Below, in pieces: positions 34,500-61,723 of a stretch of 64,000 nucleotides of DNA; the first letter of the stretch is position 1; every line of letters starts with the position of its first letter. Source of the DNA: Nocardioides albus. Lineage in GTDB: Bacteria; Actinomycetota; Actinomycetes; Propionibacteriales; Nocardioidaceae. The stretch covers positions 248,001 to 312,000 of the forward strand of contig NZ_BMQT01000002.1 of assembly GCF_014648255.1 (NCBI RefSeq). Reading direction: 5' to 3'. A program made the translations under genes and the position numbers. The notes under the pieces were generated by a model. The model was not told the DNA's origin. It ran no database searches and was given only the letters and a program-made list of their open reading frames with translations.

Positions 34500-36338
34500 C
34501 TACAGAGCGGTGACGGTCTCGGTGGGGGAGAGAGCTCGGGTCGGCGCTCCCCGGAGCAGCACGACCGACAGCAGCGCGGCGATCGCGGCGCAGACGGCAG
34601 CGCCGGCGAAGACGGTGTGCTCCTGGGCGATGGCGGCGCCGATCAGCAGGTCCTGGTACTCCTCGCACATGCCACCGCCGGTGCACACCGAGGACAGCGA
34701 CGGCAGGTCGGCCTGGGCGGCGTAGTAGCTGCGTAAGCCGATCGTGGTCAGCGCGGAGATGCCCACGAGCATGCCGACCATGCGCGCGACGACCGTGAAG
34801 GACGTGGTCAGTCCGTGCATCGACTGCTCGGTCGTGGCCAGGACCGCGGCGTTGACCGGCGCCAGCGCGAGACCGAAGCCGAGGCCGCCGGTCACGAGCA
34901 CGACGGTCGACGAGAGCGAACGGAGCGCCTCGGCGTCCCAGCGGGCCATGAAGACGAAAGCCACCGCCGCGAGCAGCATCCCACCACCCGCGATCACGCC
35001 CGCGGGCAGCCGCCGGGTGAGGAAACCACCCAGGACGGCACCCACCGGCAGCGCGACCAGGAACTCCAGCAGCACCAGGGCCGCCTTCAGTTGGCTCTCG
35101 CCGTAGACGGTGGTGCGGGCGAAGAGGGGTACGTCGATCAGCGCGGCCACCAGCGCGGCGCCGACGAAGAACGAGACGAGCACCGAGCCCCACGCAGGCA
35201 TCCGGGCGAACGCACCGCGCGGCACGATCGGGTCCTGCGCGCGGCGCAGGTGGAAGACGAAGCCGAGCGCGGCCAGAGCAGCGGCGAGGAGATACCAGGT
35301 GCCCTGCTCGGAGAAGACCGCCACCTCGGGATCGGCGGTCGCGAAGGCCAGGATCACCCCGGCTAGAGCGATCGATAGCAGCAGCGCCCCGAGGAGATCG
35401 ACCTCGGCCGAGATCCGACGGAGCACGCCGCGTACGCCCGGTCTCATGCCCCACTTCGCCAGGAACCCGACGGTGGCGACGATCGTGACGAGGCCGAGCG
35501 GCGTCAGCCAGCGTGACGACCCTGCGGCCGGCACGTAGAGCGCGCCCCAGGTCAGGTCCTGGACGAGAGCGGCGGGTTCGATCGCCAGCAGTACGAACGC
35601 GGCGGCGGCGACCAGCAACATCAGCAGCGCCGCTACGTCGGTCGAGCCGCTGGAGCCGCCAGGCGGAGGCGTGTCGAGCGGTGTATCGAGATTGTCGAGA
35701 TGACCACCAGGGCTCGGAGCCGACTGTGTTGGTCTCGACACCGGCTCGCTGCGCTCGCCGGGCTCAACCAGCGAGGCTCGCGGGTCGGCGCTTCGGCCCA
35801 GTCTGCTGATGGCGATCGCCAGCACGACGCCGACGACGAGGTTGAGGAGGAAGATCGCCCGCCAGTCCGCGACCGCGAGCACCGCGGCCCCGATCAGCGG
35901 ACCGAGCACCGAGCCGAGCTCCTGGACAGCGGAGACCAGCCCGAGCGGCACCCCACGGCGCTCGACCGGGTAGAGCGCCGCCACCAGAGCGAGGGTCGCC
36001 GGCACCAGAGCGCCACCGCCCAGCCCCTGGAAGAACCGGCCGACCACCATCGCGGTCAGGTCCCACGAGAGCGCGGTCAGGAAGGAGCCGAACGCGAAGA
36101 CGACGAGTCCGCCGACGAGCACCGGCAGGTGACCGAGGAGGTCGGCGAGCCGCCCGATCAGCGGCAGCACCGCGACGTAGCCGAGCAGGAAACCCGAGAT
36201 GAGGGGCGCGGCCCGCTGCAGCTCTTCGATCGAGAGCCCGACGCCCGCCATCATGTCCGGCAGCGCCAGGACGACGACGTAGGTGTCAGCGGCGGCGAAC
36301 GCCACCGCGACGGCCGCCAGCCATACAAGAGGTCGCAT
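34500..36338 (-). CDS. P55-like MFS transporter (partner of LprG)
   Basis: 612-aa major facilitator with about 14 membrane helices, as for Mycobacterium P55. Motif A-like GRLADLLGHLPVLVGGL (residues about 60-76) and GRFFQGLGGGALVPATLALV are present. A periplasmic loop near the C-terminus has two cysteines (SSVCTGGGMCEEY), possibly a disulfide. Residues about 193-240, between helices 6 and 7, are a Pro/Ser-rich linker largely encoded by REP-like DNA. In mycobacteria the LprG-P55 pair moves triacylated lipids and lipoglycans to the outer layers; here the LprG-like gene lies 157 nt upstream in the same direction. ATG 36338 starts at the first helix; the open frame to 36410 is not needed. Confidence 0.87.
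   Translation of the reverse strand: MRPLVWLAAVAVAFAAADTYVVVLALPDMMAGVGLSIEELQRAAPLISGFLLGYVAVLPLIGRLADLLGHLPVLVGGLVVFAFGSFLTALSWDLTAMVVGRFFQGLGGGALVPATLALVAALYPVERRGVPLGLVSAVQELGSVLGPLIGAAVLAVADWRAIFLLNLVVGVVLAIAISRLGRSADPRASLVEPGERSEPVSRPTQSAPSPGGHLDNLDTPLDTPPPGGSSGSTDVAALLMLLVAAAAFVLLAIEPAALVQDLTWGALYVPAAGSSRWLTPLGLVTIVATVGFLAKWGMRPGVRGVLRRISAEVDLLGALLLSIALAGVILAFATADPEVAVFSEQGTWYLLAAALAALGFVFHLRRAQDPIVPRGAFARMPAWGSVLVSFFVGAALVAALIDVPLFARTTVYGESQLKAALVLLEFLVALPVGAVLGGFLTRRLPAGVIAGGGMLLAAVAFVFMARWDAEALRSLSSTVVLVTGGLGFGLALAPVNAAVLATTEQSMHGLTTSFTVVARMVGMLVGISALTTIGLRSYYAAQADLPSLSSVCTGGGMCEEYQDLLIGAAIAQEHTVFAGAAVCAAIAALLSVVLLRGAPTRALSPTETVTAL
35672..35771 (-). repeat. REP-like repeat embedded in the transporter coding sequence
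   Basis: Two parts. 35,672-35,702 matches 14,789-14,819 (epimerase gene) at 30 of 31 positions in reverse complement. 35,724-35,741 is the reverse complement of gtgtcgagaccaacacag, identical to the 18-nt core in the intergenic elements at 46,199 and 61,634. The flanking ctggttgagcccggcgagcg also resembles their outer arm. The reading frame is kept across it and it codes a cytosolic or loop linker. Confidence 0.8.
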
Positions 36339-36495: not shown

Positions 36496-37218
36496 TCACG
36501 GCTTGGCGATCTCCTTGTCCACGCCGTACTCGGTCACGTCGATCGTGTAGGAGTACACCGCCTCGTCCTCACCGCTGAAGTGGCCCTTGATGGTGGCCTC
36601 GGTGAGCTCGTCGGCGTCGTTGATGATGTAGGTGACGTCGAAGTCTCCGGACGCGCCGGCGAGGATCTTCTTGACCGCGGTGTCCGGGAGCGTGCCGGTG
36701 TAGGTCGAGAGGATCTCGTCGTTGTCGGCGCCACCACGCACCGACTTGCCGACCTTCACGTCCTGGGTCGCCGAGAGCAGCGAGGAGATGCCGGTCTCCG
36801 GAGCGATCAGCGCGGCCGGGTCGGGCACGCCGTACTCGGCCGGGTCGAGCTCCTGGAACGAGGTCGTGAACGGCAGCTTCGCGTAGACGACACCGTCGAC
36901 CGAGACCACCTCGACCTGCGCTTCCGTGCCCATCACGGGCACCGTGAGGGTGCCTTCGAAGGCGGGCTGCCGGGTCAGCGTCCCGGTCGCCGCCTTCAGC
37001 GTCGTGATGCCCTCGGGCAGGTCGTCGGAGGCGATCGAGAAGTTGATCCCGCTGGTCTCGTCGAGATGCTTCTGTGCCGCGGCGAGGACCTGCAGCGGCG
37101 TACGTCCCTTGGCGGGGTCCTCGTCCCCGCAGGAGGTCATCACGAGGAGCGCGGCCAGGAGGGCGACGAGGGTGAAGGCGAGGCGCGGCAGGTTCCGCCC
37201 CAGAAGCGTGCTGAGCAT
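36496..37218 (-). CDS. lprG: LppX/LprAFG-family lipoprotein (LprG-like)
   Basis: 240-aa lipoprotein. The signal peptide (LAFTLVALLAALLVMTSC) ends in a lipobox MTSC with the lipidation Cys at about residue 30. The mature part (QKHLDETSGINFSIASDDLP, GTLTVPVMGTEAQVEVVSVDGVVYAKLP, YTGTLPDTAVKKIL) has the repeating beta-strand pattern of LppX/LprG proteins, which have a lipid-binding cavity. In mycobacteria LprG carries triacylglycerides and lipoarabinomannan together with the transporter P55. The gene order lprG then MFS is the same here, so a lipid-export function is inferred. ATG 37218. Confidence 0.85.
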   Translation of the reverse strand: MLSTLLGRNLPRLAFTLVALLAALLVMTSCGDEDPAKGRTPLQVLAAAQKHLDETSGINFSIASDDLPEGITTLKAATGTLTRQPAFEGTLTVPVMGTEAQVEVVSVDGVVYAKLPFTTSFQELDPAEYGVPDPAALIAPETGISSLLSATQDVKVGKSVRGGADNDEILSTYTGTLPDTAVKKILAGASGDFDVTYIINDADELTEATIKGHFSGEDEAVYSYTIDVTEYGVDKEIAKP

Positions 37219-44004: not shown

Positions 44005-45177
44005 ATGTTCGAGTACTTTCCCGGCAACTACGTCTGGAACCTGGGTGTGGTCGCCACGCTCAACTCCGGTGGCCTGATCGACGAGGTCGACCGCGCCTGC
44101 CGGCCGTTGAAGGAGCTGGCCGCGCAGGGCTCCGACGTGGGCACCGCCGAGTTCATGGCCGCCTGGCGCGGCGTCGCCGACCAGCTCGAGGAGCAGTCGG
44201 CCGAGGCCGAGAAGGCCGGCCACCGGCGTACGGCCGGGCAGAAGCTCTTCCGTGCGTCCGTCTACGTCTCCCAGGCCGAGCGGATGCAGCGCGCGAAGGA
44301 CCCCGGCCGCAACGCCGAGTACCAGCGCAGCGTCGACCTGCTGGTCCGCTCCTTCGAGCTGCTCGACCAGCCGACGGTCAAGGTCGCCATCCCGTACGTC
44401 GAGAACGGCCGCGAGACCACCCTGCCGGCCTACTTCCACCCGGCGGTCGGTGACGGCGAGAGTGCGCCGGTCATGATCGTGTGGAACGGGCTCGACTCGA
44501 CCAAGGAGATGATGGTCGGCGCCGGGGTCCACACCGAGATGGCCGCCCGCGGGATCTCGACGCTGATGGTCGACTGCGGCGGCGCCGGTGAGGCGCTGCG
44601 TCTGGACGGGCTCACCGCGCGGGTCGACACCGAGGCCTGGGCCGCAGCCTGCGTCGACTGGCTCGAGACCCGCTCGGACGTACGTGCCGACCGGATCGGG
44701 CTCGTGGGCTGGTCGCTGGGTGGCTACTACGCGCCTCGCGCCGCGGCGTACGAGAAGCGGCTGGCGCTGTGCGTGGCCTGGGGTGCCAACCACGACTGGG
44801 GCGCGGTGCAGAAGCGCCGGCTCGACCGTGAGGGCGAGAACCCGGTGCCGCACTACTGGGACCACGTGCTGTGGGTGTGGGGACAGCCCGACATCGACAC
44901 GTTCATCGACTTCGCCGAGGACGTCAACCTCGACGGCGTGGTCGAGGAGATCACCGTGCCGTTCCTGATCGCCCACGGCGAGAACGACCGCCAGATCCCG
45001 CTCTCCTACGCGCATCGCTCTTACGATCAGGCGGTCAACAGTCCGAAGCGCGAGCTGCGGATCTTCACGCCGGAGGAGGGCGCGACCGAGCACATCGGCT
45101 TGGACCACTTCCCGCACGTCGTCGGCTTCATCGCCGACTGGGTGGCCGACACCTTCACCGAGCTGGACGCGTCGTGA
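44005..45177 (+). CDS. Alpha/beta hydrolase, dihydroxypseudooxynicotine-hydrolase / FrsA-like
   Basis: 390-aa hydrolase with a long helical N-terminal cap (residues about 1-130) followed by an alpha/beta core. The nucleophile elbow is GLVGWSLGGYYAPRAA (GxSxG), near residue 237; the acid and His are likely in VPFLIAHGENDRQIP and TEHIGLDHF. Cap plus core matches the group including 2,6-dihydroxypseudooxynicotine hydrolase and related C-C bond hydrolases. Fourth gene of the operon, 25 nt after FAH; its TGA stop overlaps the GTG start of the cyclase gene (GTGA), so translation is coupled. Confidence 0.83.
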   Translation: MFEYFPGNYVWNLGVVATLNSGGLIDEVDRACRPLKELAAQGSDVGTAEFMAAWRGVADQLEEQSAEAEKAGHRRTAGQKLFRASVYVSQAERMQRAKDPGRNAEYQRSVDLLVRSFELLDQPTVKVAIPYVENGRETTLPAYFHPAVGDGESAPVMIVWNGLDSTKEMMVGAGVHTEMAARGISTLMVDCGGAGEALRLDGLTARVDTEAWAAACVDWLETRSDVRADRIGLVGWSLGGYYAPRAAAYEKRLALCVAWGANHDWGAVQKRRLDREGENPVPHYWDHVLWVWGQPDIDTFIDFAEDVNLDGVVEEITVPFLIAHGENDRQIPLSYAHRSYDQAVNSPKRELRIFTPEEGATEHIGLDHFPHVVGFIADWVADTFTELDAS

Positions 45178-46160
45178 CCTCCCTTGATCGGAGCGATCCC
45201 GAAGGCGAGATCGCGAAGACGGTCGCCCGCGTCTCGAACTGGGGTCGCTGGGGCGAGGACGACGTCCACGGCACGATGAACTTCCTCACCGATCAGATGA
45301 GGATCGAGGCGGCGGGGCTGGTGCGGACCGGCCGGTCCTACTCGCTCTCGCTGCCCTTCGACATGGACGGGCCGCAGAACGGCTGGCGGCGGCGTACGAA
45401 CCCGGTGCACACCATGCTCGACACCGGCACCGACGCGGTCGCCGGTATCCAGGGGTTCCCGCACGGGATCGGCGGCGCGGACGACGTCATCGCGATGCCG
45501 CTGCAGTGCTCGACCCAGTGGGACGGGCTCGGCCACATCTTCGACCACGGGCAGGCCTGGAACGGCCGCCCGGCGGAGTCCGTGGTCACCTCGCTGGGCG
45601 ATGGCGTCACCGGGATCGAGACGGTCGCGGACGTGGTCTGCGGTCGCGGGGTGCTGCTCGACGTCGGCCGCGCAGTCGGCACCGACGGTGAGCTCCCCGA
45701 CGGCTTCGCGATCACCGAGGAGCACCTGGAGCACACGATCGCCGCCCAGGGGGCCAGCGCGGCCGTGGGCCGCGGCGACATCGTCGTCGTACGCACCGGG
45801 CAGCTCTCCCGCGCCCGCCGGGGCGTCGCCGCGGGTGAGGGCTGGGGCGGCTATGCCGGGGGAGCGGCCCCCGGTCTCTCCTTCACCACTGCCGACTGGC
45901 TGCATCGCACCGAGATCGCCGCGATCGCCACCGACACCTGGGGTTTCGAGGTCCGGCCCAACGAGTTCGACGAGGCCTTCCAGCCCCTCCACCAGGTCGC
46001 CATCCCGCACCTCGGCCTCTTTCTGGGCGAGATGTGGGACCTCGACGGCCTCGCCGCCGCGTGCGCTGAGGACGGTCGGTTCGACTTCCTGCTCACCGCG
46101 GCGCCCCTGCGGGTCACCGGCGCCGTCGGCGCCCCGGTCAACCCCATCGCCCTGCGCTGA
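45174..46160 (+). CDS. Cyclase-family protein (kynurenine formamidase-like metal hydrolase)
   Basis: 328-aa member of the cyclase family (arylformamidase/ polyketide cyclase-like), with the metal-site segment QWDGLGHIFDHGQAW (residues about 120-134) in place of the usual HxGTHxD, and the conserved RGVLLDVGRA and RGDIVVVRTGQ segments. Members hydrolyse amides, lactones or act as isomerases. Start GTG 45174 overlaps the previous stop by 4 nt. Last gene of the catabolic operon; a palindromic repeat starts 5 nt after its stop and may act as a terminator. Confidence 0.85.
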   Translation: MTSLDRSDPEGEIAKTVARVSNWGRWGEDDVHGTMNFLTDQMRIEAAGLVRTGRSYSLSLPFDMDGPQNGWRRRTNPVHTMLDTGTDAVAGIQGFPHGIGGADDVIAMPLQCSTQWDGLGHIFDHGQAWNGRPAESVVTSLGDGVTGIETVADVVCGRGVLLDVGRAVGTDGELPDGFAITEEHLEHTIAAQGASAAVGRGDIVVVRTGQLSRARRGVAAGEGWGGYAGGAAPGLSFTTADWLHRTEIAAIATDTWGFEVRPNEFDEAFQPLHQVAIPHLGLFLGEMWDLDGLAAACAEDGRFDFLLTAAPLRVTGAVGAPVNPIALR

Positions 46161-46164
46161 CCAC

Positions 46165-46292
46165 GCTGGTCGAGCCGCGAGGCCGCCTGCGGCCGAGCGT
46201 GTCGAGACCAACACAGTCCCATCGAGCGCGAAGGCGACCGTGTTGGTCTCGACACGGATTCGTTCGTTCCTCACGAATCCGGCTCGACCAGC
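46165..46292. repeat. REP-like nested palindromic element, copy A
   Basis: Outer arms gctggtcgagcc (46165-46176) and ggctcgaccagc (46281-46292); inner arms gtgtcgagaccaacac (46199-46214) and gtgttggtctcgacac (46240-46255), both perfect. It starts 5 nt after the TGA of the cyclase gene. Copy B at 61,600-61,723 has the same arms and offset from a stop codon. Its right part also adjoins the parC remnant. Confidence 0.88.
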
Positions 46293-46521
46293 GGGGCGGT
46301 TGGCGGGGCAATCTGCTGGCGACCGGGCCGGAGACGGCGTCGATGGGCTGCTCGAGAGGGATCCCGGAGCAGCGCCGACCCAGGCGAAGACGATCGAGTC
46401 CTCCTCACCCTTGAGATAGCGGTGCGTGCGTACGCCGCCGGTGGCACGGCCCTTGGCGGGGTACTCGCTGAACGGGGTGGTCTTGACCGAGCCCGGCCCC
46501 GCGCCGGCAGAGCGATCGAGG
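46255..46521 (-). pseudogene. Decayed duplicate of the parC 3' end
   Basis: Translating leftward gives SVKTTPFSEYPAKGRATGG, then VRTHRYLKGEEDSIVFAWVG, almost identical to the C-terminus of ParC coded at about 52,950-53,090 (VRAHRYLKGEDSIVFAWVG). The matching DNA runs from about 46,255 to 46,521 against about 52,765 to 53,100. The copy has one extra codon, lacks about 75 nt that in parC encode AMAAAASGAPIELPEIDPRR, and the parC stop codon TAG is TTG here. No start or upstream domains are present. It marks one side of the inserted catabolic cassette. Confidence 0.88.
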
Positions 46522-46821
46522 TTCCGACCGCCACCGACACCAGGGCCAATGAGAATCCAACGTTCCGTGTGCGCTCTAACGTCCGCCCGAACCGGCACGA
46601 ACGAGAACGTGCGGGATGGCTTCATCTTGCCGACCGATGCCCGAGGGGTCGTCAACGATGCGATCTCGTCAGCAGTAGGCACGGGGCATCCGGTGCCGAC
46701 CCCCTGACCGTCCGCTCGCTCGCCCGAGTCTCGCGTTCGGTCTGTGCGACATCGCCGGTGCGCGGCGGTCGCGACCGCCGTCGAGATCTGTCTGTCGACG
46801 GCTTCGTCGCGAAGGTGGGCC
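46522..46821. other. 300-nt region between the parC remnant and the second operon
   Basis: No gene recognised. Several open frames cross it but none shows a family motif, and the GC content is lower than in flanking genes. It probably contains the promoter upstream part of the SDR operon and the junction of the inserted segment. Confidence 0.45.
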
Positions 46822-46841
46822 GTTGACTGTTAACAGTCAAC
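46822..46841. promoter_or_regulatory. Perfect 20-bp palindromic operator before the second catabolic operon
   Basis: GTTGACTGTTAACAGTCAAC is a perfect palindrome 64 bp upstream of the SDR start. It contains a TTGACT hexamer that could be a -35 box. The most likely ligand is the GntR/FCD regulator coded at the end of the same operon, which would repress until the substrate binds. Confidence 0.75.
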
Positions 46842-46904
46842 TGTGCCACTCTGGTGACGTTCGCCACATGCGACCACCGTCACAGTCAGCGTCAGGAGAC
46901 CATC

Positions 46905-47675
46905 GTGAGCACTCGTCGTACCGCCGTCATCACCGGAGCCGCCTCGCCGAAGGGGATCGGCCTCGCCACGGCCCATCGCTTCGTGAACGAGGGTTGGGAC
47001 GTCGTGGTCCTCGACCTCGACGCCGACGGTGTAGCCGGAGTGGCCAAGGAACTCGCCGACCACGGCATGGCACGGTCCTTCGGCCACGTGGTGGACGTAG
47101 CCGACGAGGTCTCGGTCCTCGCCGCTCGTGACGCGGTTGCGGCGGAGGTGGCCGCGGAGCGGCTCGCTCCGGTCGGCGCGGTGGTCAATGTCGCAGGCAT
47201 CACCTCGCCGGTGGACTTCCTCGACACCACGCTCGAGTTGTGGAACCGGGTGATGGCTGTGAACGCCACCGGGACGTATCTGGTCACCAAGGCGTTCCTG
47301 CCGGCGATGATCGAGCAGGGCTGGGGTCGGGTCGTCAACATGTCGTCGGTCTCCGCGCAGCGAGGCGGCGGAGTGTTCGGCAAGGTTCCCTACTCCTCGG
47401 CCAAGGCCGCCGTCCTCGGTTTCACCAAGGCGTTGGCTCGCGAGCTCGGTCCCACCGGCATCACCGTCAATGCCGTGACCCCAGGGGCGGTAGACACCGA
47501 CATCCGGGTCGGCAGCACGGACGAGCAGGAGGCCGAGATCGCGCGTGCGATCCCGGTAGGGCGGACCGCCACCACCGACGAGGTCGCGGCGTCGATCGTG
47601 TTCCTGGCGTCCGAGGACGCCGGCTACCTCACCGGCGTCACGCTCGACATCAACGGCGGAAGCCACCTTCACTGA
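46905..47675 (+). CDS. Short-chain dehydrogenase/reductase (SDR)
   Basis: 256-aa classical SDR. Cofactor motif TGAASPKGIG near the start, an Asp after strand 2 (VVLDLDADG) that favours NAD, NVAG, catalytic Ser in NMSSVSAQ, and YSSAK (YxxxK). It oxidises or reduces a hydroxyl; neighbours suggest a sugar acid or polyol. GTG 46905 with AGGAGA 5-6 nt upstream. First gene of a rightward six-gene operon, 28 nt before the permease gene. Confidence 0.9.
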   Translation: MSTRRTAVITGAASPKGIGLATAHRFVNEGWDVVVLDLDADGVAGVAKELADHGMARSFGHVVDVADEVSVLAARDAVAAEVAAERLAPVGAVVNVAGITSPVDFLDTTLELWNRVMAVNATGTYLVTKAFLPAMIEQGWGRVVNMSSVSAQRGGGVFGKVPYSSAKAAVLGFTKALARELGPTGITVNAVTPGAVDTDIRVGSTDEQEAEIARAIPVGRTATTDEVAASIVFLASEDAGYLTGVTLDINGGSHLH

Positions 47676-47703
47676 CCCGTAGCGACCCATCTAGGAGTTG
47701 AGC

Positions 47704-49155
47704 ATGGATACCGCCGTACTCGTCCATCTGATCATCGCCGTCGTCGGCATCGTGGTCCTGATCGCCTGGGCCAAGATCAACCCGGTCATCTCGCTGGTCG
47801 TGGGTGCGCTCTATCTCGGCGTGGCCGGAGGACTGGGATTCGCCGACACGGTCGCCGCAGTCAACGAGGGCTTCGGCAACCTGATGGCCGAGGTGGGCCT
47901 GATCATCGGCTTCGGCGTGATGATCGGCACCACCCTCACCGCCACCGGGACCATCCAGCGGGTCGTCGACGGGTTGCTGCGGCTGGTCGGACCGCAGAAG
48001 TCGCCGTACGTGCTGGGGTTGAGCGCCGGCATCATCTTCCCCTCCATCTACTTCGACGTCGCCCTGGTCATCCTCGCGCCGATCGCAGGAGCACTCGCCA
48101 AGCGCACCGGTCGAAGCATCGCGACGATGGCCGGTTCCTTGGCGATCGGGCTCGAGGTCGCACTGTTGATCGTGGTCCCGGGTGTGGCGGCGGTCGCGGT
48201 CGCCGGACCCCTCGGCGTCGACCTCGGCACCCTGTTGCTGTGGGGCATCCCGCTGGCCGTGTTCTTCATCATCTCCAGCATCTATCTCCACGACCGACTG
48301 ATGCGGCTCATCTTCGACCCGGTGAAGGACCGTGACGACGCCTTCGACGACTCCATCTTCGGTGTCGAGGGCACCGAGAAACCGTCCACCGGCGGCGACG
48401 ACACTGATGGCGATGGCGATGGCGATGGCGATGGCGATGGCGATGGCGATGGCGATGGCGATGGCCGTGTGAGCGTGGCGACGGCGCCTGCGCCCACCGC
48501 GACGAAGTACCGCATGCCGCTGGTGGTCGCACTCCTTCCGGTGATCGTTCCGGTGTTACTGATAGTCGTCGACACCATCGCCCGAGTCGCGGGGCAGGAG
48601 GTGCCGCTGCTGTCCTTCCTCGGCAGCCCGGTGGTGGCCCTGCTGATCGGTCTGTTCATCGGCATCCTGCTCGCCGTCCCTGCGGTCACTCGAGACGGCG
48701 TCGACGAGCTCATCACCAGGGGAGCCCAGACCTCGGGGTCGATCCTCCTGTTCACCGGGGTCGCGGGCTCCCTCGGCCAGGTGATCACCGAGGTGGGCGT
48801 CGCAGACATGCTCAGTTCTGTCTTCCAAGCCAATGCCTCGATTCCGGTGCTTCTGGCCTGGGCGGTCGCCGCCGTTCTGCGCCTGGCGCAGGGCTCTGCG
48901 TCGGTGGCAGCGATCACCGCGGCCAGCCTGCTCGCACCGGTGCTCGGCTCGATCGATACCGCGGCGATCCTCATCCTGCTGGCCTCGGGCTGCGGCGCGG
49001 CATTCGGTGGCCACGTCACTGACAACACCTTCTGGATCTTCAAACAGATGCTCGGCTTCACCACCAAGGGCACCTTCAAGATCTATACCCTCGCGCAGTC
49101 GACCTTCGCCGTCGTCGGCCTGGTCACCTGCCTGGCACTGGACCTGGTGGTATGA
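47704..49155 (+). CDS. GntP-family sugar-acid:H+ symporter with an Asp-Gly repeat loop
   Basis: 483-aa permease with about 12 hydrophobic segments. The pattern GLSAGIIFPSIYFDVALVIL and the C-terminal LAQGSASVAAITAASLLAPV and GGHVTDNTFWIFKQ match gluconate/glycerate permeases of the GntP family. The central loop between the two halves contains ten Asp-Gly pairs (residues 235-254) encoded by a perfect hexamer array. Its TGA stop overlaps the next ATG (ATGA). It should import the operon's substrate, probably an aldonate-type acid. Confidence 0.9.
   Translation: MDTAVLVHLIIAVVGIVVLIAWAKINPVISLVVGALYLGVAGGLGFADTVAAVNEGFGNLMAEVGLIIGFGVMIGTTLTATGTIQRVVDGLLRLVGPQKSPYVLGLSAGIIFPSIYFDVALVILAPIAGALAKRTGRSIATMAGSLAIGLEVALLIVVPGVAAVAVAGPLGVDLGTLLLWGIPLAVFFIISSIYLHDRLMRLIFDPVKDRDDAFDDSIFGVEGTEKPSTGGDDTDGDGDGDGDGDGDGDGDGDGRVSVATAPAPTATKYRMPLVVALLPVIVPVLLIVVDTIARVAGQEVPLLSFLGSPVVALLIGLFIGILLAVPAVTRDGVDELITRGAQTSGSILLFTGVAGSLGQVITEVGVADMLSSVFQANASIPVLLAWAVAAVLRLAQGSASVAAITAASLLAPVLGSIDTAAILILLASGCGAAFGGHVTDNTFWIFKQMLGFTTKGTFKIYTLAQSTFAVVGLVTCLALDLVV
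48406..48465 (+). repeat. Perfect (GATGGC)10 hexamer array in the GntP gene
   Basis: Ten identical GATGGC units in frame, coding (Asp-Gly)10 in a hydrophilic loop. Copy number can change by slippage without shifting the frame. The preceding GACGACACT is degenerate, so the array has clear ends. Confidence 0.92.
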
Positions 49156-50084
49156 CGATGTCCGCTACCTCGCGAACCCCCAAGCAGCGCGTCACCTTCG
49201 TCGGCGTCGGCGCGATCGGCCTCCCGATGGCGAAGCAGATCCTGCGGCACGGCCATGAGGTCGTCGCCGTCGACCCCGGTGCCGCCCAGAGAGAGCGCGC
49301 CGAGGCCGTCGGCCTCCGCGCCGGCGCCACCCCCGAGTCTGCCGCCGAGGCCGATGTGGTGATCTGCATGGTGGCGACCCCCGATCAGCTGCGCACCGTT
49401 GCTATCGGCAGCGATGGCGTCCTGAGCCGCATGCGCGCCGGCAGCATCTTCGTCGTCATGAGCACAGTCGGCCCGCAGGCGGTCACCGATCTGGTGAACG
49501 TAGCGCCCGAGGGCGTACGCATCCTGGATGCACCGGTGACCGGAGGCGTCGCCCGTGCTCGCACCGGAGATCTGCTCGTCTTCGCTGCCGGCCCCGACGC
49601 GACCATCGAGACCGCACGACCGGTGCTCGAGGCGTTGGGCAGCATCGTCGAATGTGGCCCGGACGCCGGCCAGGGGCAGGCGTACAAGGCGGTCAACCAG
49701 CTGCTCTGCTCGGTGCACATCGTCGCCGCGGCCGAGGCTCTGGCGCTGGCCGAGCGGCTCGGACTGGACCCCGAACGAGTGTTGCCAGCCGTCGCCGGCG
49801 GTGCCGGTGGCTCCTGGATGCTCTCGGACCGGGGACCGCGGATGCTGCAGGGCCTCGACGCCGAGGTCACCAGTGCCATCGAGATCTTCGTCAAGGACGC
49901 CTCGCTGGTCACACAGATCGCCGATGACATCGGCTTCGAGGCTCCTCTGATCGCGGCCGCCCGGGCGAAGTACCTCGATGCCCGTGACGCCGGGCTCGGC
50001 AAGCACGACGACTCCCAAGTGATCGCGACCTACCGCCAGCAGCACCGAGACCCGTACAGACTCCCGCACGAAGGAAGTGAGTGA
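49152..50084 (+). CDS. 3-hydroxyisobutyrate dehydrogenase-like NAD(P)-dependent beta-hydroxyacid dehydrogenase
   Basis: 310-aa protein. N-terminal Rossmann motif FVGVGAIGLPMAKQILRHGH (GxGxxG), substrate-binding DAPVTGGVARA, and the catalytic Lys in GQGQAYKAVNQLL. The family oxidises beta-hydroxyacids such as 3-hydroxyisobutyrate, tartronate semialdehyde, L-threonate or sulpholactaldehyde; which one is unknown. ATG 49152 overlaps the permease stop; ATG 49158 is an alternative. Confidence 0.88.
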   Translation: MTMSATSRTPKQRVTFVGVGAIGLPMAKQILRHGHEVVAVDPGAAQRERAEAVGLRAGATPESAAEADVVICMVATPDQLRTVAIGSDGVLSRMRAGSIFVVMSTVGPQAVTDLVNVAPEGVRILDAPVTGGVARARTGDLLVFAAGPDATIETARPVLEALGSIVECGPDAGQGQAYKAVNQLLCSVHIVAAAEALALAERLGLDPERVLPAVAGGAGGSWMLSDRGPRMLQGLDAEVTSAIEIFVKDASLVTQIADDIGFEAPLIAAARAKYLDARDAGLGKHDDSQVIATYRQQHRDPYRLPHEGSE

Positions 50085-50085
50085 C

Positions 50086-50964
50086 ATGTCCACCCATCAA
50101 CCCGCCGCCGCACCAGCTCGGGTCGCCGACAGCGCTGACGAGCATCGGCTCCAGCGCATCCGTGAGGCGGCCCAACGGATCCGGGCGAACGCGCTGGTGC
50201 AGGCAGAAGTGCAGGGACAGGGCTACATCGGCCAGGCCCTCGACATCGCCGATGTGCTCGCCGTCCTGTACGCCGACCAGCTCCGTCTGCGTCCCGACGA
50301 CCCGACGTGGGAGGGGCGCGACCGGTGCCTGCTCTCCATCGGCCACTACGCCCTGGCCCTGTACGCGGCCTTGGCCGAGGCCGGCGTGATCCCGCGTGAG
50401 GAGCTGACCACCTACGCCACCGACGGCTCGCGACTGCCGATGTCGGCGATGGCGTCCTACACCCCCGGCGTGGAGATCTCCGGTGGCTCCTTGGGCCACG
50501 GCCTCACCATCGCCAACGGCGTCGCGCTCGGCCTCAAGCGCAAGAGCAACGACGCCTTCGTCTACAACATCCTCTCCGACGGCGAACTCAACGAAGGTTC
50601 CACGTGGGAGGCGGCCGCGGTCGCCGCCCACCACGGGCTCGACAATCTGATCGCCATCGTCGACTTCAACAACCAGCAGGCCGACGGCAAGAGCAGCGAG
50701 ATGCTCGGTATGGAGCCCATCGGGGCCAAGTTCGAGGCCTTTGGCTGGGTCACCCGACGAGTCGACGGAAACAACGTCGCCGAGGTCCTCCCGGCGCTCG
50801 AGGAGCTCCGCTCCGTCGAAGACCCGGCGCCACGCTGCCTCGTCGTGAACACCAAGCTCGGCAAGGGGGTCGACTTCCTCGAGCAGCGCGAGAAGCTCCA
50901 CTTCATGCAAGTGGCGCCGGAGGAATGGAAGCTCGCCCACGACCAACTGAAGGAGCAGGCATGA
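50086..50964 (+). CDS. Transketolase, N-terminal (thiamine diphosphate) subunit
   Basis: 292-aa separate N-terminal half of a transketolase. Features: GHYALALYAALAEAG, PGVEISGGSLGHGLTIANGVALG, and the ThDP/Mg motif LSDGELNEGSTWEAA followed by NLIAIVDFNNQQADG. It needs the C-terminal half coded next. Split transketolases in catabolic operons often act on unusual ketoses. Starts 2 nt after the dehydrogenase stop with AAGGAAG upstream; its own stop overlaps the next start as ATGA. Confidence 0.9.
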   Translation: MSTHQPAAAPARVADSADEHRLQRIREAAQRIRANALVQAEVQGQGYIGQALDIADVLAVLYADQLRLRPDDPTWEGRDRCLLSIGHYALALYAALAEAGVIPREELTTYATDGSRLPMSAMASYTPGVEISGGSLGHGLTIANGVALGLKRKSNDAFVYNILSDGELNEGSTWEAAAVAAHHGLDNLIAIVDFNNQQADGKSSEMLGMEPIGAKFEAFGWVTRRVDGNNVAEVLPALEELRSVEDPAPRCLVVNTKLGKGVDFLEQREKLHFMQVAPEEWKLAHDQLKEQA

Positions 50965-51971
50965 GCACCGTCAACCAGAGCCCGAAGCGGCTCACCTCCG
51001 ACGCGATGAGCGCCTCGCTCGCCCGCGCGGACCAGCGCGTCACCGCAGCTCCGCTCGGGCATGCGCTCGTCGCCCTGGCCGAACAGGACGAGCGGGTCCT
51101 CGGACTCTCGGCCGACCTCGCGAAGTACACCGACCTGCACATCCTGCGTGACGCTTTGCCGGAGCGCTTCTACCAGATCGGCATGGCCGAGCAGGCGCTG
51201 CTGGGTGCCGCCGCGGGCCTGGCCATGGAGGGTTTCATTCCGTTCGCGTCGACCTACTCCGTCTTCGCGACCCGGCGCGCCTACGACTTCCTGTGCTTGG
51301 ACATCGCCGAAGCCAACCTGAACGTCAACATGGTGTGTGCCCTGCCCGGACTGACGACCGGCTACGGCCCCTCGCACCAGGCCACCGAGGACATCGCCAT
51401 CCTGCGCGGCATGCCCAACCTGACGATCGTCGACCCCGCCGACGCGGTGGACATCGAGCAGGCGGTTCCCCAACTGGCCGCCCACGACGGACCGACCTAC
51501 ATGCGGGTCCTGCGCGGCAAGGTGCCGCGGGTGCTCGACGAGTACGACTACACCTTCGAGCTCGGCAAGGCGAAGCTCATCCGCGGCGGCGGTGAGGTGC
51601 TGCTCATCTCTACCGGGCTGATGACCGAACGCGCCCTGGAGGCCGCCGCCGCGCTCGAGGAGGCAGGCGTCGACACCGCCGTGCTGCACGTGCCCACCCT
51701 CAAGCCGTTGGACGAGGAGACGATCCGACGCGAGCTCGGCCGCGACCGGTTGGTGCTCACCTGTGAGAACCACACGATCATCGGAGGTCTTTTCGACGCG
51801 ATCGCCCACATGCTGGTGCGTGACGGGACCGTCCGACGGATCACTCCGGTCGGCCTGCCCGACGAGTTCCTCGACGCCGGCGCCCTGCCGACGCTGGCGG
51901 ACAGGTACGGCGTCAGCACGGACAAGCTGGTGGAGCGGGTCCTGGGCCTGCGTCGCAGTCAGGACGCCTGA
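50961..51971 (+). CDS. Transketolase, C-terminal subunit
   Basis: 336-aa second half: the pyrimidine-binding domain (RVLGLSADLAKYTDLHILRD, FYQIGMAEQALLGAAAGLAM with the Glu that activates ThDP, GLTTGYGPSHQATEDIAILR) and the C-terminal transketolase domain (GEVLLISTGLMTERAL). Together with the preceding gene it forms the active enzyme. AAGGAGCAGG lies just before the ATG. There is no kinase or aldolase in the operon, so the ketose substrate is either unphosphorylated or phosphorylated elsewhere. Confidence 0.9.
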   Translation: MSTVNQSPKRLTSDAMSASLARADQRVTAAPLGHALVALAEQDERVLGLSADLAKYTDLHILRDALPERFYQIGMAEQALLGAAAGLAMEGFIPFASTYSVFATRRAYDFLCLDIAEANLNVNMVCALPGLTTGYGPSHQATEDIAILRGMPNLTIVDPADAVDIEQAVPQLAAHDGPTYMRVLRGKVPRVLDEYDYTFELGKAKLIRGGGEVLLISTGLMTERALEAAAALEEAGVDTAVLHVPTLKPLDEETIRRELGRDRLVLTCENHTIIGGLFDAIAHMLVRDGTVRRITPVGLPDEFLDAGALPTLADRYGVSTDKLVERVLGLRRSQDA

Positions 51972-51980
51972 GGACGAGCC

Positions 51981-52724
51981 GTGACCGCGGCTGCCGGGTC
52001 CGCTCACTATCATGGGGAAGACCAGCCACCGACTACCTCAGTCCCGGAGGATCCGTATCCCGTGAGCACCCAGTCAGCCGCCCTGTCCGGCCTGGCACGG
52101 ACCAACCTCCGTGAACAGGCGCTCTCGGCATTGCGGCAGGCCATCAGCACGGGCGAGCTACCACCGGGCACTCACCTGGTGGAGGTCGACCTCTCCGAGC
52201 GTCTCGGCATCAGCCGCGGAACGCTGAGGGAGGCCATGCGACAGCTGCAGCAAGAAGGCATCGTGTCGACGAACGCCCGCGGGCGCCTGGCCGTGCGTAC
52301 ATTGGACGCCAAGGAGGTCGCCGACCTCTTCATCGTGCGGGCGGCACTGGAGTCGGCCGCAGCTCAGACACTGTGTGAGCGGGAGGACCGCGACGAGATC
52401 GTCAGTGTCCTGCGCGAGACCCTGCGCATGATGGATGAGGCCGTCGAATCGTCGCTGGAGGAGCGCATCGAGACCGACCTCAACTTCCATCTGACGCTGT
52501 GCCGGCTCACCGGCAACGCCACCCTGCTTCACTCCTGGCGCAACCTCGAGGGCGCGATCCGGATGTCCTTCATGTGGGCGGGCGAGGCCAAGGCAGTCGG
52601 CAACATGCGGGTCGACCGTCACGCGGCCATCGTCGACGCCATCGAGGCCGGCGACGGGGAGACGGCCCGAGCTGTCGTCCTCGACCACATGGCCGAGGCC
52701 TCGGCCAACCTCGTCCGAGGCTGA
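51981..52724 (+). CDS. GntR-family transcriptional regulator, FCD subfamily
   Basis: 247 aa from GTG 51981 (GAGGA 6 nt upstream, 9 nt after the transketolase stop); GTG 52062 would give 220 aa. The winged helix-turn-helix (LREQALSALRQAISTGELPPG, SERLGISRGTLREAMRQLQQ) is followed by an FCD ligand-binding domain with metal-site residues (IETDLNFHLTL, RHAAIVDAIEAGD). It is the last gene of the operon and the likely binder of the 20-bp palindrome at 46,822-46,841. Confidence 0.88.
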   Translation: MTAAAGSAHYHGEDQPPTTSVPEDPYPVSTQSAALSGLARTNLREQALSALRQAISTGELPPGTHLVEVDLSERLGISRGTLREAMRQLQQEGIVSTNARGRLAVRTLDAKEVADLFIVRAALESAAAQTLCEREDRDEIVSVLRETLRMMDEAVESSLEERIETDLNFHLTLCRLTGNATLLHSWRNLEGAIRMSFMWAGEAKAVGNMRVDRHAAIVDAIEAGDGETARAVVLDHMAEASANLVRG

Positions 52725-52764
52725 CCGAGGCCGCGACCTCGACGCTGGTCGCCAGGCACGTCAA

Positions 52765-52799
52765 CGGATTCGTTCGTTCCTCACGATTCCGGCTCGACC
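52765..52799. repeat. Truncated REP-like element next to the parC stop
   Basis: Matches 46,255-46,289 (right part of copy A) with one internal mismatch, an A to T in tcacgaatcc/tcacgattcc. The left part of the element, with the gtgtcgagaccaacac arm, is missing: the match stops abruptly at 52,765. This break point coincides with one end of the duplicated parC segment. Confidence 0.75.
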
Positions 52800-52821
52800 G
52801 ACGGGCAAAGGCTGGCGCGGG

Positions 52822-55299
52822 CTACCTGTTGGCGACCGGCCCGGCGACGGCGTCGATGGGCTGTTCCAGCGGGATGCCGGAGCCGTCGCGGCGCGGGTCG
52901 ATCTCGGGCAGCTCGATGGGCGCCCCGGAGGCTGCTGCCGCCATGGCAGGAGCGGCGCCGACCCAGGCGAAGACGATCGAGTCCTCGCCCTTGAGGTAGC
53001 GGTGTGCGCGTACGCCGCCGGTGGCACGGCCCTTGGCGGGGTACTCGCTGAACGGCGTGGTCTTCACCGAGCCGGTCTCGGTGCCGGGCAGAGCGCTCGA
53101 GGAGCCGGCGACGGTCACGACCGCGGCACCCTCGGGGGCGTCGGGGGAGACGACGCCGAAGAAGACGACCTTGGACCCGTGGGCCATCCGGACGCCGGCC
53201 ATCCCGCCCGCGCTGCGGCCCTGGGGGCGTACGACATCGGCGGGGAAGTGGAGGAGCTGGGCGTCGGAGGTGACGAAGACGAGCGACTCGGTGCCGGTGC
53301 GCAGCTCGGCCGCGCCGACCACCTCGTCGCCGTCGGCGAGCTTGATGACCTCCCACTCGTCCTTGTTGAGCAGCACCTCCGGGTTGACCCGCTTCACCAC
53401 GCCCAGGCGGGTGCCGAGCGCAATGCCGGGACCGTCGGTGGCCAGCGTCGTGAGCGCCAGCGCACGCTCGTCGGACTCCAGCGAGAGCAGCGCGGACAGA
53501 GGCAGACCGCCGGAGAGGTTCGGGTCGCCGTGGGTCGGCGGCATCGCCGGCAGGTCGAGCACACCGAGACGTACGAGGCGCCCGCGGGAGGTGAGCACGC
53601 CGATCTGGCCGCGCGCGGTCGCCGGGACCACCGAGACGATCACGTCGTGGTTGGCGCGGCTCCCCCCAGATCCAGCAGAGCCAGTGGAGAACGGCTCGGC
53701 ATCCGAGGAGCGGGCCAGGAGACCGGTCGAGGAGAGCAGCGCAAAGCACGGGTCGTCGGCGACCTCCAGGCTCATCGCCTCGAGCGCCGGGGTGCCGGCG
53801 GAGGCGAGCAGCACGGTGCGCCGCGGGGTGCCGAACGTCTTGGCCACCTCGGCCAGCTCGTCGGAGACGACCTTGCGCAGCATCTCGTCGTCGCCGAGGA
53901 TCGAGTCGAGGTATTCGATCGTCGAGCGCAGGTCGTCGCGCTCCTTCTCCAGCTCGATCTTGGAGAACTTCGTCAACCGGCGCAGCGCCATGTCGAGGAT
54001 GTACTCCGCCTGCGGCTGGCTCAGGTCGAAGACCGACATCAGCCGCTCCTTGGCCTCGCCGGCGTTGTCGGAGGAGCGGATCAGCTGGATGACCTCGTCG
54101 ATGTCGAGGATCGCGATCAGCAGGCCGTCGACGAGGTGGAGCCGGTCGGCGGCCCGGTCGCGGCGGAACTGCGAACGGCGGCGGACGACCTCGTAGCGGT
54201 GTCCCAGGAAGACCTCGAGGAGCTCCTTGAGGCCGAGGGTGCGCGGCTGGCCGTCGACGAGCGCGACGTTGTTGATGCCGAAGGAGTCCTCCAGCGGCGT
54301 CATCTTGTAGAGCTGCTCGAGGACGGCCTCGGGCACGAACCCGTTCTTGACCTCGATGACGAGCCGGGTGCCGTGCTCGCGGTCGGTGAGGTCCTTGAGG
54401 TCGGCGATGCCCTGGATCTTCTTCGACTGCACCAGCGTCTTGACCCGCTCGATGATCTTCTCGGTGCCGATGTTGAACGGCAGCTCGGTGATCACGATGC
54501 CCTTGCGGCGCCCGAACGGCTCGATCCGCGTGGTGGCGCGGATCTTGAAGGAGCCACGGCCGGTCTCGTACGCATCCCGGATCCCGTCCAGGCCGACGAT
54601 GGTGCCGCCGGTGGGGAGGTCGGGGCCGGGGATGAACTTCATCAGCGTGTCGAGCTCGGCGCCCGGGTGCTTGATCAGGTGGCGCGCGGCGGCGATGACC
54701 TCGATCAGGTTGTGCGGGGCCATGTTGGTGGCCATCCCGACCGCGATCCCGGTGGCGCCGTTGACCAGCAGGTTGGGGATCGCGGCGGGGAGCACGCTCG
54801 GCTCCATCTCCCGCGAGTCGTAGTTGGGCCGGAAGTCGACCGTGTCTTCCTTGATGTCATCGGTCATCGCCTGCGCGGCCGGACCCATCCGGGCCTCGGT
54901 GTAACGCATCGCGGCAGCCGGGTCGTCGCCGCCGGGGGAGCCGAAGTTGCCGTGACCGTCGATCATCGGCAGCCGCATCGCCCACGGCTGCGCCATCCGG
55001 ACGAGGGCGTCGTAGATCGCGCCGTCACCGTGCGGGTGCAGCTTGCCCATCACCTCACCGACGATGCGGGCACACTTCACGTGGCCCCGGTCAGGGCGGA
55101 CGCCCATGTCGTTCATCGTGTAGAGGATCCGGCGCTGCACCGGCTTGAGACCGTCACGGGCGTCGGGCAGCGCCCGCGAGTAGATGACGGAGTAGGAGTA
55201 CTCCAGGAATGAGGACCGCATCTCGTCCCCGATGTCGGTGTCGAGGATGTGCTCCTCGAAGTCGTCGGGGACGTCCTGCTTGGTCTTGCCGCGTGCCAT
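52822..55299 (-). CDS. parC: DNA topoisomerase IV / gyrase-type subunit A
   Basis: 825-aa DNA-breaking subunit, partner of ParE at 10,713. The active-site Tyr lies in AAAMRYTEARMG. The quinolone-determining region reads HPHGDGAIYDALVRMAQPW, with Gly where E. coli GyrA has Ser83. The C-terminal beta-pinwheel has a degenerate GyrA-box-like PQGRSAGGMAG. ATG 55299 (MARGKTKQ) is proposed; ATG 55308 is equally possible, and neither has a strong ribosome binding site. The 3' end is duplicated 6.5 kb away at 46,255-46,521. A Gly/Ser-rich insertion (FSTGSAGSGGSRAN) lies around residue 560. Confidence 0.92.
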   Translation of the reverse strand: MARGKTKQDVPDDFEEHILDTDIGDEMRSSFLEYSYSVIYSRALPDARDGLKPVQRRILYTMNDMGVRPDRGHVKCARIVGEVMGKLHPHGDGAIYDALVRMAQPWAMRLPMIDGHGNFGSPGGDDPAAAMRYTEARMGPAAQAMTDDIKEDTVDFRPNYDSREMEPSVLPAAIPNLLVNGATGIAVGMATNMAPHNLIEVIAAARHLIKHPGAELDTLMKFIPGPDLPTGGTIVGLDGIRDAYETGRGSFKIRATTRIEPFGRRKGIVITELPFNIGTEKIIERVKTLVQSKKIQGIADLKDLTDREHGTRLVIEVKNGFVPEAVLEQLYKMTPLEDSFGINNVALVDGQPRTLGLKELLEVFLGHRYEVVRRRSQFRRDRAADRLHLVDGLLIAILDIDEVIQLIRSSDNAGEAKERLMSVFDLSQPQAEYILDMALRRLTKFSKIELEKERDDLRSTIEYLDSILGDDEMLRKVVSDELAEVAKTFGTPRRTVLLASAGTPALEAMSLEVADDPCFALLSSTGLLARSSDAEPFSTGSAGSGGSRANHDVIVSVVPATARGQIGVLTSRGRLVRLGVLDLPAMPPTHGDPNLSGGLPLSALLSLESDERALALTTLATDGPGIALGTRLGVVKRVNPEVLLNKDEWEVIKLADGDEVVGAAELRTGTESLVFVTSDAQLLHFPADVVRPQGRSAGGMAGVRMAHGSKVVFFGVVSPDAPEGAAVVTVAGSSSALPGTETGSVKTTPFSEYPAKGRATGGVRAHRYLKGEDSIVFAWVGAAPAMAAAASGAPIELPEIDPRRDGSGIPLEQPIDAVAGPVANR

Positions 55300-55463
55300 A
55301 AGGGGCATTGTCTCGAATCCCTGTGCGAACGCCACACCGGGCTCGCCGATTGAGCCCAATCAGTCCGCCGGCCCCTTCCGTACGCCGCACATCCGCGTAC
55401 ATTGGCTGTAGAGACCAAACCGTCCAGGAGTCACCGGTTCAACGCACATGGAGGTGCTTGAAG

Positions 55464-55691: not shown

Positions 55692-55706
55692 CGGCGGGGG
55701 CCTGTC

Positions 55707-56102
55707 CTAGACAGGGACCACCGTGAGGATGTGCTCAAGGCCCTTGAAGTCCCCGGGATTACGGGTGAGGAGCGCAGCCCGGGCGTGACGGGCGGTAGCC
55801 GCGATCATGAGGTCGGCTGTTCTGCTCCGTGGATTTCGGCCGCCTGTCTTCACGGCAGCGGCTATCGCGCCATACCAGTGTGCGACCTCGACGCTGTAAG
55901 GGATCGGGTCGTACGCGGCGAGGACGGTCCTATAGCGATGCTCGCGTTCCGCGGACTTGATCGGGTCCGATGTGTGCAGCCCGAATGAAAGCTCGCCGAC
56001 CGTGACGGCCGAGATAGCTACGTGGGCCGCGAGGTCGGCGAGGTCGGGTGGCGGCGCGATGACGACCGAGGTGTCAAGGAGGCCGAGATCGTGGATGCTC
56101 AT
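55707..56102 (-). CDS. vapC: VapC-type PIN-domain toxin
   Basis: 131-aa PIN ribonuclease. Acidic residues are in place: Asp in GLLDTSVVI, Glu in TVGELSFGLH, Asp in SRTADLMIAATA, and Asp or Asn in LLTRNPGDFKGL. VapC toxins cut tRNA or rRNA to slow growth. ATG 56102 overlaps the stop of the Phd-type antitoxin gene (ATGA), the usual coupling in such modules. Confidence 0.87.
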   Translation of the reverse strand: MSIHDLGLLDTSVVIAPPPDLADLAAHVAISAVTVGELSFGLHTSDPIKSAEREHRYRTVLAAYDPIPYSVEVAHWYGAIAAAVKTGGRNPRSRTADLMIAATARHARAALLTRNPGDFKGLEHILTVVPV

Positions 56103-56395
56103 CCCTGCTGCTCTTCTTCCCACGGATCACGAATGGTGTCGTCGATGAATTCGTCGAGGCTGCGAATGTCGGCGAGCCAATCGAGGGCGACATCGTCGTT
56201 CGCTCCGGGCTCGTCCCAGCGAGGGATGTTGTCGGAACTGCGCCAGACCGGGGGCTTCGTGTTCGGGACGTGAGGCACGAGATCTGCAACCGGGACGCCG
56301 TCGCGGGTCACGGTGAACGCTTCTCCGGCGCGGACGCGGTCGATGATCTGAGCGTTGTGGTTGCGAAGATCGCGTTGCGGAATCGTCGTGCTCAT
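56099..56395 (-). CDS. Phd/YefM-family antitoxin
   Basis: 98-aa antitoxin. The N-terminus MSTTIPQRDLRNHNAQIIDRVRAGEAF is the Phd/YefM DNA-binding fold, with TVTRDGVPVADLVPH after it. The acidic C-terminal tail (DEFIDDTIRDPWEEEQQ) should bind and neutralise the PIN toxin coded next. A GTAGCA-N5-TGCTAC palindrome just upstream is the likely autoregulatory site. Confidence 0.87.
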   Translation of the reverse strand: MSTTIPQRDLRNHNAQIIDRVRAGEAFTVTRDGVPVADLVPHVPNTKPPVWRSSDNIPRWDEPGANDDVALDWLADIRSLDEFIDDTIRDPWEEEQQG

Positions 56396-56404
56396 ACCGA
56401 CAGT

Positions 56405-56421
56405 GTAGCAAGTTCTGCTAC
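56405..56421. promoter_or_regulatory. Candidate toxin-antitoxin operator
   Basis: GTAGCA (56405-56410), 5 nt, TGCTAC (56416-56421): a perfect interrupted palindrome 10 bp upstream of the antitoxin start codon, positioned to overlap its promoter and allow autorepression by the antitoxin or complex. Confidence 0.65.
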
Positions 56422-56467
56422 GACTGTGTCGCAGTCGGCAACTGGTGCGTACCGCTAGATTTCTCTC

Positions 56468-61599: not shown

Positions 61600-61723
61600 G
61601 CTGGTCGAGCCGCGAGGCCGCCTGCGGCCGAGCGTGTCGAGACCAACACAGCCCATCGAGCGCCGACGGGACCGTGTTGGTCTCGACACGCCTTCGCCTA
61701 GCGGCTCCGGCGGCTCGACCAGC
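61600..61723. repeat. REP-like nested palindromic element, copy B
   Basis: Outer arms gctggtcgagcc (61600-61611) and ggctcgaccagc (61712-61723); inner arms gtgtcgagaccaacac (61634-61649) and gtgttggtctcgacac (61674-61689). About 50 nt of the left side are identical to copy A at 46,165. It lies between the tail ends of converging tdk and sepH and could terminate both. Confidence 0.88.

What the first reader, a model, noticed from the sequence alone, without database searches (positions are those of the whole stretch)
46255..53100. Catabolic cassette bracketed by a duplicated parC 3' end
DNA at about 46,255-46,521 repeats the last part of parC (about 52,765-53,100), including some downstream sequence. 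The copy keeps a recognisable ParC C-terminus but has an internal deletion of about 75 nt, an added codon and a lost stop. Between the copies lie exactly one operon (SDR, GntP, HIBADH-like, split transketolase, GntR) and its operator. This is the layout left when DNA inserts at the 3' end of an essential gene and restores it, with the old end displaced. No integrase is visible, so homologous or repeat-mediated recombination is more likely. An essential topoisomerase gene used this way, without a phage-type enzyme, would be an unusual integration site.
Basis: partly seen in the sequence, partly recalled or inferred. Interest (0 to 1): 0.75.

Follow-up and report, generated by a model that had tools for sequence, protein, structure and literature searches.

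The report
Foreign operon beside a duplicated parC end
Six genes predicted to use a sugar acid lie in this bacterium between the usually essential gene parC and a broken second copy of parC's end, an arrangement not found in its eight nearest sequenced relatives and likely left when foreign DNA recombined into parC on one side and was joined in without matching sequence on the other.

Summary
Bases 46,254-46,521 repeat the parC 3' end plus 58 nt beyond its stop (52,764-53,102) at 85-89% identity, with a 70-bp frameshifting deletion, one added codon and a lost stop. Between the copies lies one six-gene operon with its palindrome. The nearest relative by parC, G218, has the empty site: cyclase gene, short palindrome, parC. 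Of 60 other genus genomes with a held flank (60 of 214 others searched), none has a second parC tail there; in 54 a lipoprotein gene follows parC within about 1.5 kb, and the six exceptions are close relatives with inserted genes at that junction. The operon is foreign to the genus as searched; the whole unit, palindrome to GntR, stands in two Prauserella genomes. No tyrosine integrase lies on the 626-kb contig. I favour homology-anchored insertion: parC as homologous end, a non-homologous joint at the other, native tail pushed aside. Which tail is foreign cannot be read from sequence. A known kind of event at an unusual gene, inside a cargo hot spot seen only in this clade.

The parts
45174..46160 (+). 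cyclase-family gene (PF04199), last gene of an older catabolic block at about 37.3-46.2 kb; native left neighbour of parC before the operon came
   Evidence: Pfam; next to parC in G218, G146, G217 and G011
46166..46294 (.). two-armed palindromic repeat element between cyclase gene and parC fragment; a one-hairpin version stands at the empty site of G218
   Evidence: a relative at 61,601-61,690
46254..46521 (-). decayed copy of the parC 3' end with sequence beyond the stop; 70-bp frameshifting deletion, one added codon, lost stop
46522..46821 (.). 300 nt of unassigned DNA between the fragment and the operator; no match to it in the rows listed by the genus search
46822..46841 (.). perfect palindrome GTTGACTGTTAACAGTCAAC, predicted operator of the GntR regulator; homology to the Prauserella operons begins exactly here
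   Evidence: 20/20 in L127 and L148
46905..47675 (+). SDR-family dehydrogenase
   Evidence: PF13561
47704..49155 (+). GntP-family permease with an internal run of Asp-Gly repeats
   Evidence: PF02447
49152..50084 (+). HIBADH-like dehydrogenase; nearest NCBIfam model is L-threonate dehydrogenase (247 bits, under its cut-off of 350)
   Evidence: PF03446 and PF14833
50077..50964 (+). transketolase, N-terminal half
   Evidence: PF00456
50961..51971 (+). transketolase, C-terminal half
   Evidence: PF02779 and PF02780
51981..52724 (+). GntR-FCD regulator, last gene of the operon; homology to Prauserella ends at 52,714
   Evidence: PF00392 and PF07729
52725..52763 (.). short right end of the insert, up to the point where the repeat begins
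52764..52821 (.). half of the palindromic element and post-stop sequence, second copy
52822..55359 (-). intact parC (845 codons); its 3' end, to about 53,102, is the second copy of the repeat

Best explanation
The six-gene operon between the two parC ends, not found in the other genus genomes searched, was likely inserted by recombination anchored in parC on one side and joined illegitimately, without matching sequence, on the other, which would have left the old parC end stranded at 46,254-46,521. Steps shown: both parC ends; the empty site in G218; the operon's absence from the searched genus genomes and its presence as a unit in two Prauserella genomes; no tyrosine integrase on the contig. 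Steps inferred: linear incoming DNA carried a related parC tail followed by the operon; a homologous crossover inside parC joined it to the resident 5' part and kept parC whole; its far end was joined illegitimately into the resident parC about 280 nt before its stop; the stranded tail then decayed, losing 70 nt. The operon would work as a self-regulated catabolic unit: GntP imports a sugar acid, the SDR and HIBADH-like enzymes oxidise it, the split transketolase moves a two-carbon unit, and GntR represses from the palindrome at 46,822 (all predicted).
For: Repeat with native flank on each outer side. Empty site in G218; also no operon and no fragment in the 18-20 kb held around the parC end of G125, G175, G217, G146, G011, G015 and G001. 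None of 60 genus genomes other than the window's own has a second parC tail within the held flank of about 1.5 kb. Of 215 genus genomes, own included, only G000 holds the operon; the best others are partial, 71-72% over the transketolase genes. Whole operon in the same order in 2 of 80 named loci, Prauserella isguenensis and P. salsuginis; parC found in 0 of 85 loci. Nucleotide homology runs from exactly the palindrome to 10 nt before the GntR end. 0 of 9 tyrosine-integrase matches lie on contig C2. Fragment-only changes fall 4/2/5 on codon positions 1/2/3 (decay); parC-only changes that can be polarised fall 0/0/3; 6 more, all at position 3, are ambiguous. The same reading was proposed for effector-immunity arrays of Vibrio cholerae (PMC5361080, passages).
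Against: Which tail is incoming is not resolved: frag-parC 20/191, frag-G218 21/191, frag-G175 22/191, frag-G125 23/191, tree unresolved. The window's parC shows no clear mosaic break: G218 is nearest overall, nearest or joint nearest in 10 of 17 windows of 150 nt. No donor with parC followed by this operon was found. Illegitimate joints often show microhomology (general knowledge), which cannot be tested without the donor. One end of the repeat lies inside a repetitive palindrome, so repeat-mediated routes stay open. Over all differing sites the bias is towards codon position 3 (13 of 21), so part of the divergence may be older than the insertion. Illegitimate events of this type are described as rare (PMC5361080, passage).
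Confidence: 0.48

Rival explanations
1. Campbell-type integration: a circle (plasmid or circularised DNA) carrying the operon and a stretch of parC tail integrated by one homologous crossover, giving the same layout with both copies as recombinants.
For: Gives the layout with one crossover; the longest identical stretch between the copies is 48 nt, reached by 866 of 20,000 shuffles; parts of the operon match 280 plasmid records of other bacteria, none over 80% of it.
Against: No replication, partition or transfer protein among the six between the copies; 20 of 36 pairs of parC genes from different genomes have identical runs of 48 nt or more in the same columns, so no crossover point can be read.
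Confidence: 0.2
2. Capture at a staggered break: foreign DNA was ligated into a break with long overhangs at the parC end and fill-in duplicated about 340 bp of target on both sides.
For: Both tails are within the range of the window's own clade and parC shows no clearly foreign tail; one Ku gene is present in the genome; no inverted repeat of 8 nt or more at the insert ends.
Against: A duplication of this length is far beyond usual target duplications (general knowledge); the copies differ as much as different species do, so the event would have to be about as old as the species splits.
Confidence: 0.15
3. Two separate events: first a duplication of the parC tail with its palindrome, later an independent insertion of the operon between the copies.
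For: The fragment looks old (about 10% diverged, several indels).
Against: 0 of 60 other genus genomes carries a tail duplication within the held flank; needs two rare events at one spot.
Confidence: 0.12
4. Remnant of an integrase-type genomic island that used the parC 3' end as attachment site and lost its integrase.
For: Layout as at protein-gene 3'-end sites (general knowledge): gene kept whole, old end at the far border.
Against: No tyrosine integrase on contig C2; only 3 phage records match, two weakly to the transketolase and one to the parC end; insert filled by the operon from the palindrome on; similarity runs 58 nt beyond the stop.
Confidence: 0.05

Closest known systems
Homology-facilitated illegitimate recombination as proposed for T6SS effector-immunity arrays of Vibrio cholerae (PMC5361080, passages read)
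   Same: A conserved gene part serves as homologous anchor, new DNA enters, the old part is shifted downstream; no evidence of an integrase.
   Different: There the shifted part is an immunity gene that may still protect; here it is a dead tail of a housekeeping gene and the cargo is a catabolic operon.
Orphaned 3' regions at Rhs loci (mentioned in PMC5361080)
   Same: Constant 5' part, strings of displaced 3' regions.
   Different: Rhs 3' regions are variable; the parC tails are versions of one sequence.
Homology-facilitated illegitimate recombination in E. coli conjugation (PMC3240628, search listing with start of abstract only)
   Same: Homology at one end of linear DNA, illegitimate joint at the other.
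   Different: A laboratory observation; no parC or natural operon in what was seen.
Merodiploids made by transformation in pneumococcus (PMC3784515, abstract and outline)
   Same: Transformation leaves an essential gene in intact and inactivated copies.
   Different: Tandem duplications of about 100-900 kb through repeats, not a 0.3-kb tail around 6 kb of foreign DNA.

Membership tests
Homology-facilitated illegitimate recombination product | Homologous anchor at one border | tested here: met
   parC tail repeat
Homology-facilitated illegitimate recombination product | Non-homologous foreign DNA added | tested here: met
   operon absent at high identity from the other 214 genus genomes searched and absent at the empty site
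Homology-facilitated illegitimate recombination product | Tail in use comes from the donor, displaced tail is native | tested here: inconclusive
   position says yes, sequence distances do not decide
Homology-facilitated illegitimate recombination product | Illegitimate joint with short microhomology | not testable with these tools
   donor sequence unknown
Integrase-type genomic island at a gene 3' end | Site-specific recombinase in or near the element | tested here: not met
   0 of 9 tyrosine-integrase matches on contig C2; none of the six operon proteins is a recombinase; serine recombinases were not searched genome-wide
Integrase-type genomic island at a gene 3' end | Target gene kept whole, old 3' end at far border | tested here: met
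   layout
Integrase-type genomic island at a gene 3' end | Short identical att core standing out from its arms | tested here: not met
   48-nt identical run (866 of 20,000 shuffles reach it) is ordinary for parC pairs between genomes (20 of 36 pairs)
Composite transposon or IS-borne cassette | Transposase or terminal inverted repeats | tested here: not met
   no transposase among the six proteins, no inverted seed of 8 nt or more between the outermost 100 nt of each end

The most novel reading that the evidence does not exclude
In this clade the 3' end of the topoisomerase gene parC is a standing docking site: parC gives the homology and foreign catabolic DNA is stacked behind it without any integrase, with the decayed parC tail marking one such docking.
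Probability: 0.25. Interest if true: 0.6.

Novelty: new member of a known kind. Interest (0 to 1): 0.4.

Why it matters
It is a readable scar of gene gain beside a housekeeping gene with no integrase in sight, with an empty site for comparison and a dead gene piece that can serve as a rough neutral clock beside an operon that has stayed open. If parC is a repeated anchor in this clade, conserved housekeeping genes would count as integration sites that searches built on integrases and tRNA genes would miss.

Tried and rejected
Looked for a foreign parC tail by distances along the gene: the C-terminal part is faster-evolving in most pairs, and no clear break was found; G218 is nearest overall but only nearest or joint nearest in 10 of 17 windows, and around 45.5-46.2 kb other relatives are closer than G218. 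Looked for an att-like core: the longest identical run is ordinary. A first sign that the fragment behaves as a functional orthologue (13 of 21 differences at codon position 3) weakened once changes were polarised with my own cut-offs: fragment-only changes are 4/2/5. Sites shared only by fragment and G175 (53,056; 53,076; and 53,104, beyond the clear alignment) hinted at a mosaic but are too few. A scan for GntP relatives in named genomes found none; the transketolase scan worked (412 relatives, best 80 kept). Literature: searches (15 of 217 papers listed; 15 of 49; 3 of 3; 6 of 6; 4 of 4) showed, in the listings seen, no paper on parC as an insertion site of this kind; most subscription papers are not held.

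Full report
What was checked. The repeat is real. A local alignment gives 140/157 identical bases (E 8e-56) and 102/120 (E 4e-34) for the two halves of the fragment against the parC end, and the ungapped repeat finder shows the same blocks. The fragment runs from 46,254 to 46,521; the matching stretch runs from 52,764 to 53,102, of which 58 nt lie beyond the parC stop. The fragment has a 70-nt deletion between two GGAGC repeats, one added codon, a stop changed to TTG and a 1-nt gap near its broken end. parC itself is open over 845 codons.

What lies between. Six genes in one direction: SDR, GntP permease, HIBADH-like dehydrogenase, the two halves of a transketolase and a GntR-FCD regulator. 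A perfect 20-nt palindrome stands at 46,822. In two named genomes, Prauserella isguenensis (L127) and P. salsuginis (L148), all six genes stand in the same order and direction at 62-84% protein identity; these are 2 of the 80 loci kept of 412. Nucleotide homology to both begins at the first base of the palindrome and ends at 52,714, ten bases before the GntR end, and the palindrome is identical in both. So the likely transferred unit is operator plus operon. The 300 nt to its left (46,522-46,821) remain unassigned.

Foreign to the genus as searched. Of 215 genus genomes, own included, only the window's own holds the operon; the best others are partial (G146, G011, G084: 71-72% over the transketolase genes), with proteins 50-70% identical in those three, so related modules exist in the genus but not this one. 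Plasmid records match in part (280 records, none covering 80%). None of 85 loci that hold related transketolase halves (80 named, 5 from the genus) has parC in its held flank.

The empty site. In G218, the closest relative by parC (98 differences in 2,259 sites before the tail), the cyclase gene is followed by one short hairpin element and then parC. The window has a longer two-armed version of the element there, followed by the fragment; half of the element stands again next to the intact parC. So the left copy stands where the parC end stood before, and the right copy is joined to the rest of parC.

The surroundings are a hot spot, but in the genomes looked at only in this clade. Sixty of the 214 other genus genomes searched had a parC locus held with about 1.5 kb of flank; these are the better matches, not a random draw. 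In 54 of them the same lipoprotein gene (window 36,496-37,218) follows parC. The six others (G011, G175, G218, G146, G217, G015) are all close relatives of the window. Five of these carry the catabolic block that fills 37.3/38.5-46.2 kb of the window; G175 adds 1.45 kb with a hydrolase-like and a small SnoaL-like protein (named by eye, no family search), and G015 has 2.6 kb with two membrane-protein-like genes (named by eye) instead. G125 and G001, also close, keep the plain junction. None of the 60 has a second parC tail; two hits in G012 are pieces of one tail.

Which tail is foreign. In 191 shared coding columns the fragment differs from its own parC at 20, from G218 at 21, from G175 at 22 and from G125 at 23, while the window's parC differs from G218 and from G125 at 14 each. 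The tree of these columns is unresolved. Of the 20 differences, 11 are changes on the fragment side, spread 4/2/5 over codon positions, 3 are changes on the parC side, all at position 3, and 6 are ambiguous, all at position 3 (the cut-offs for this sorting are mine). That fits a dead piece beside a working gene. It does not say whether the two tails were equal at the start. Along parC, G218 is nearest or joint nearest in 10 of 17 windows of 150 nt, with no single point where the nearest relative changes for good; the left flank shows no clear break either.

Mechanism. No tyrosine integrase lies on the contig (0 of 9 own-genome matches), no tRNA lies in the window, there is no transposase among the six proteins and no inverted repeat at the ends. 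Serine recombinases were not searched genome-wide. The longest identical run between the copies, 48 nt, is ordinary for parC pairs between genomes. I therefore favour homology-facilitated illegitimate recombination with parC as anchor. The passages read in PMC5361080 describe the same reading for effector-immunity arrays: a conserved stretch as anchor, an illegitimate joint at the other end, the old part shifted downstream; they also call such events rare. A ComEC-family competence protein and Ku are both present, so neither DNA uptake nor end joining is excluded on gene content. Circle integration and capture with a long target duplication remain as rivals with the same layout.

The operon is likely in use. 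The fragment has gathered three indels in about 216 nt of coding remnant; the six reading frames of the operon are open. If the insertion is as old as the decay suggests, selection has kept the operon open. This is an inference, since part of the fragment's damage could have come with the event.

Verdict. A real, well-bounded scar of gene gain beside a usually essential gene, with no integrase found. The kind of event is known; the place and the clade-limited hot spot are what is notable.

Noticed in passing
55698-56451: About 750 nt on the 5' side of parC, with a PIN-domain toxin-like gene (PF01850) and an apparent Phd-type partner (by eye), is missing from G218; a VapB-like antitoxin gene (PF09957) lies just before it.
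   Followed up: partly
43970 (between the FAH-hydrolase and alpha/beta-hydrolase genes): G218 has an extra SDR-like gene of 717 nt here (L121 13756-14472; named by eye), with a gap of like size in G011, G217 and G146; the window and G175 lack it.
   Followed up: partly
46166-46294, 61601-61690, 35721-35741: Palindromic repeat element of the REP/REPIN kind (name recalled) with many matches in the genome; different versions stand behind parC in the relatives.
   Followed up: partly
48405-48465: GATGGC hexamer run inside the GntP permease gene, coding for an Asp-Gly repeat between its two halves; length variation between strains is likely.
   Followed up: no
L040 4125-6623 (G015): Two membrane-protein-like genes (by eye) fill the parC-lipoprotein junction in G015, another cargo at the same junction.
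   Followed up: partly
MT837316.1, 6656-6876: A short record labelled 'Bacteriophage sp.' carries a parC-like stretch at 73% identity; perhaps host DNA.
   Followed up: no
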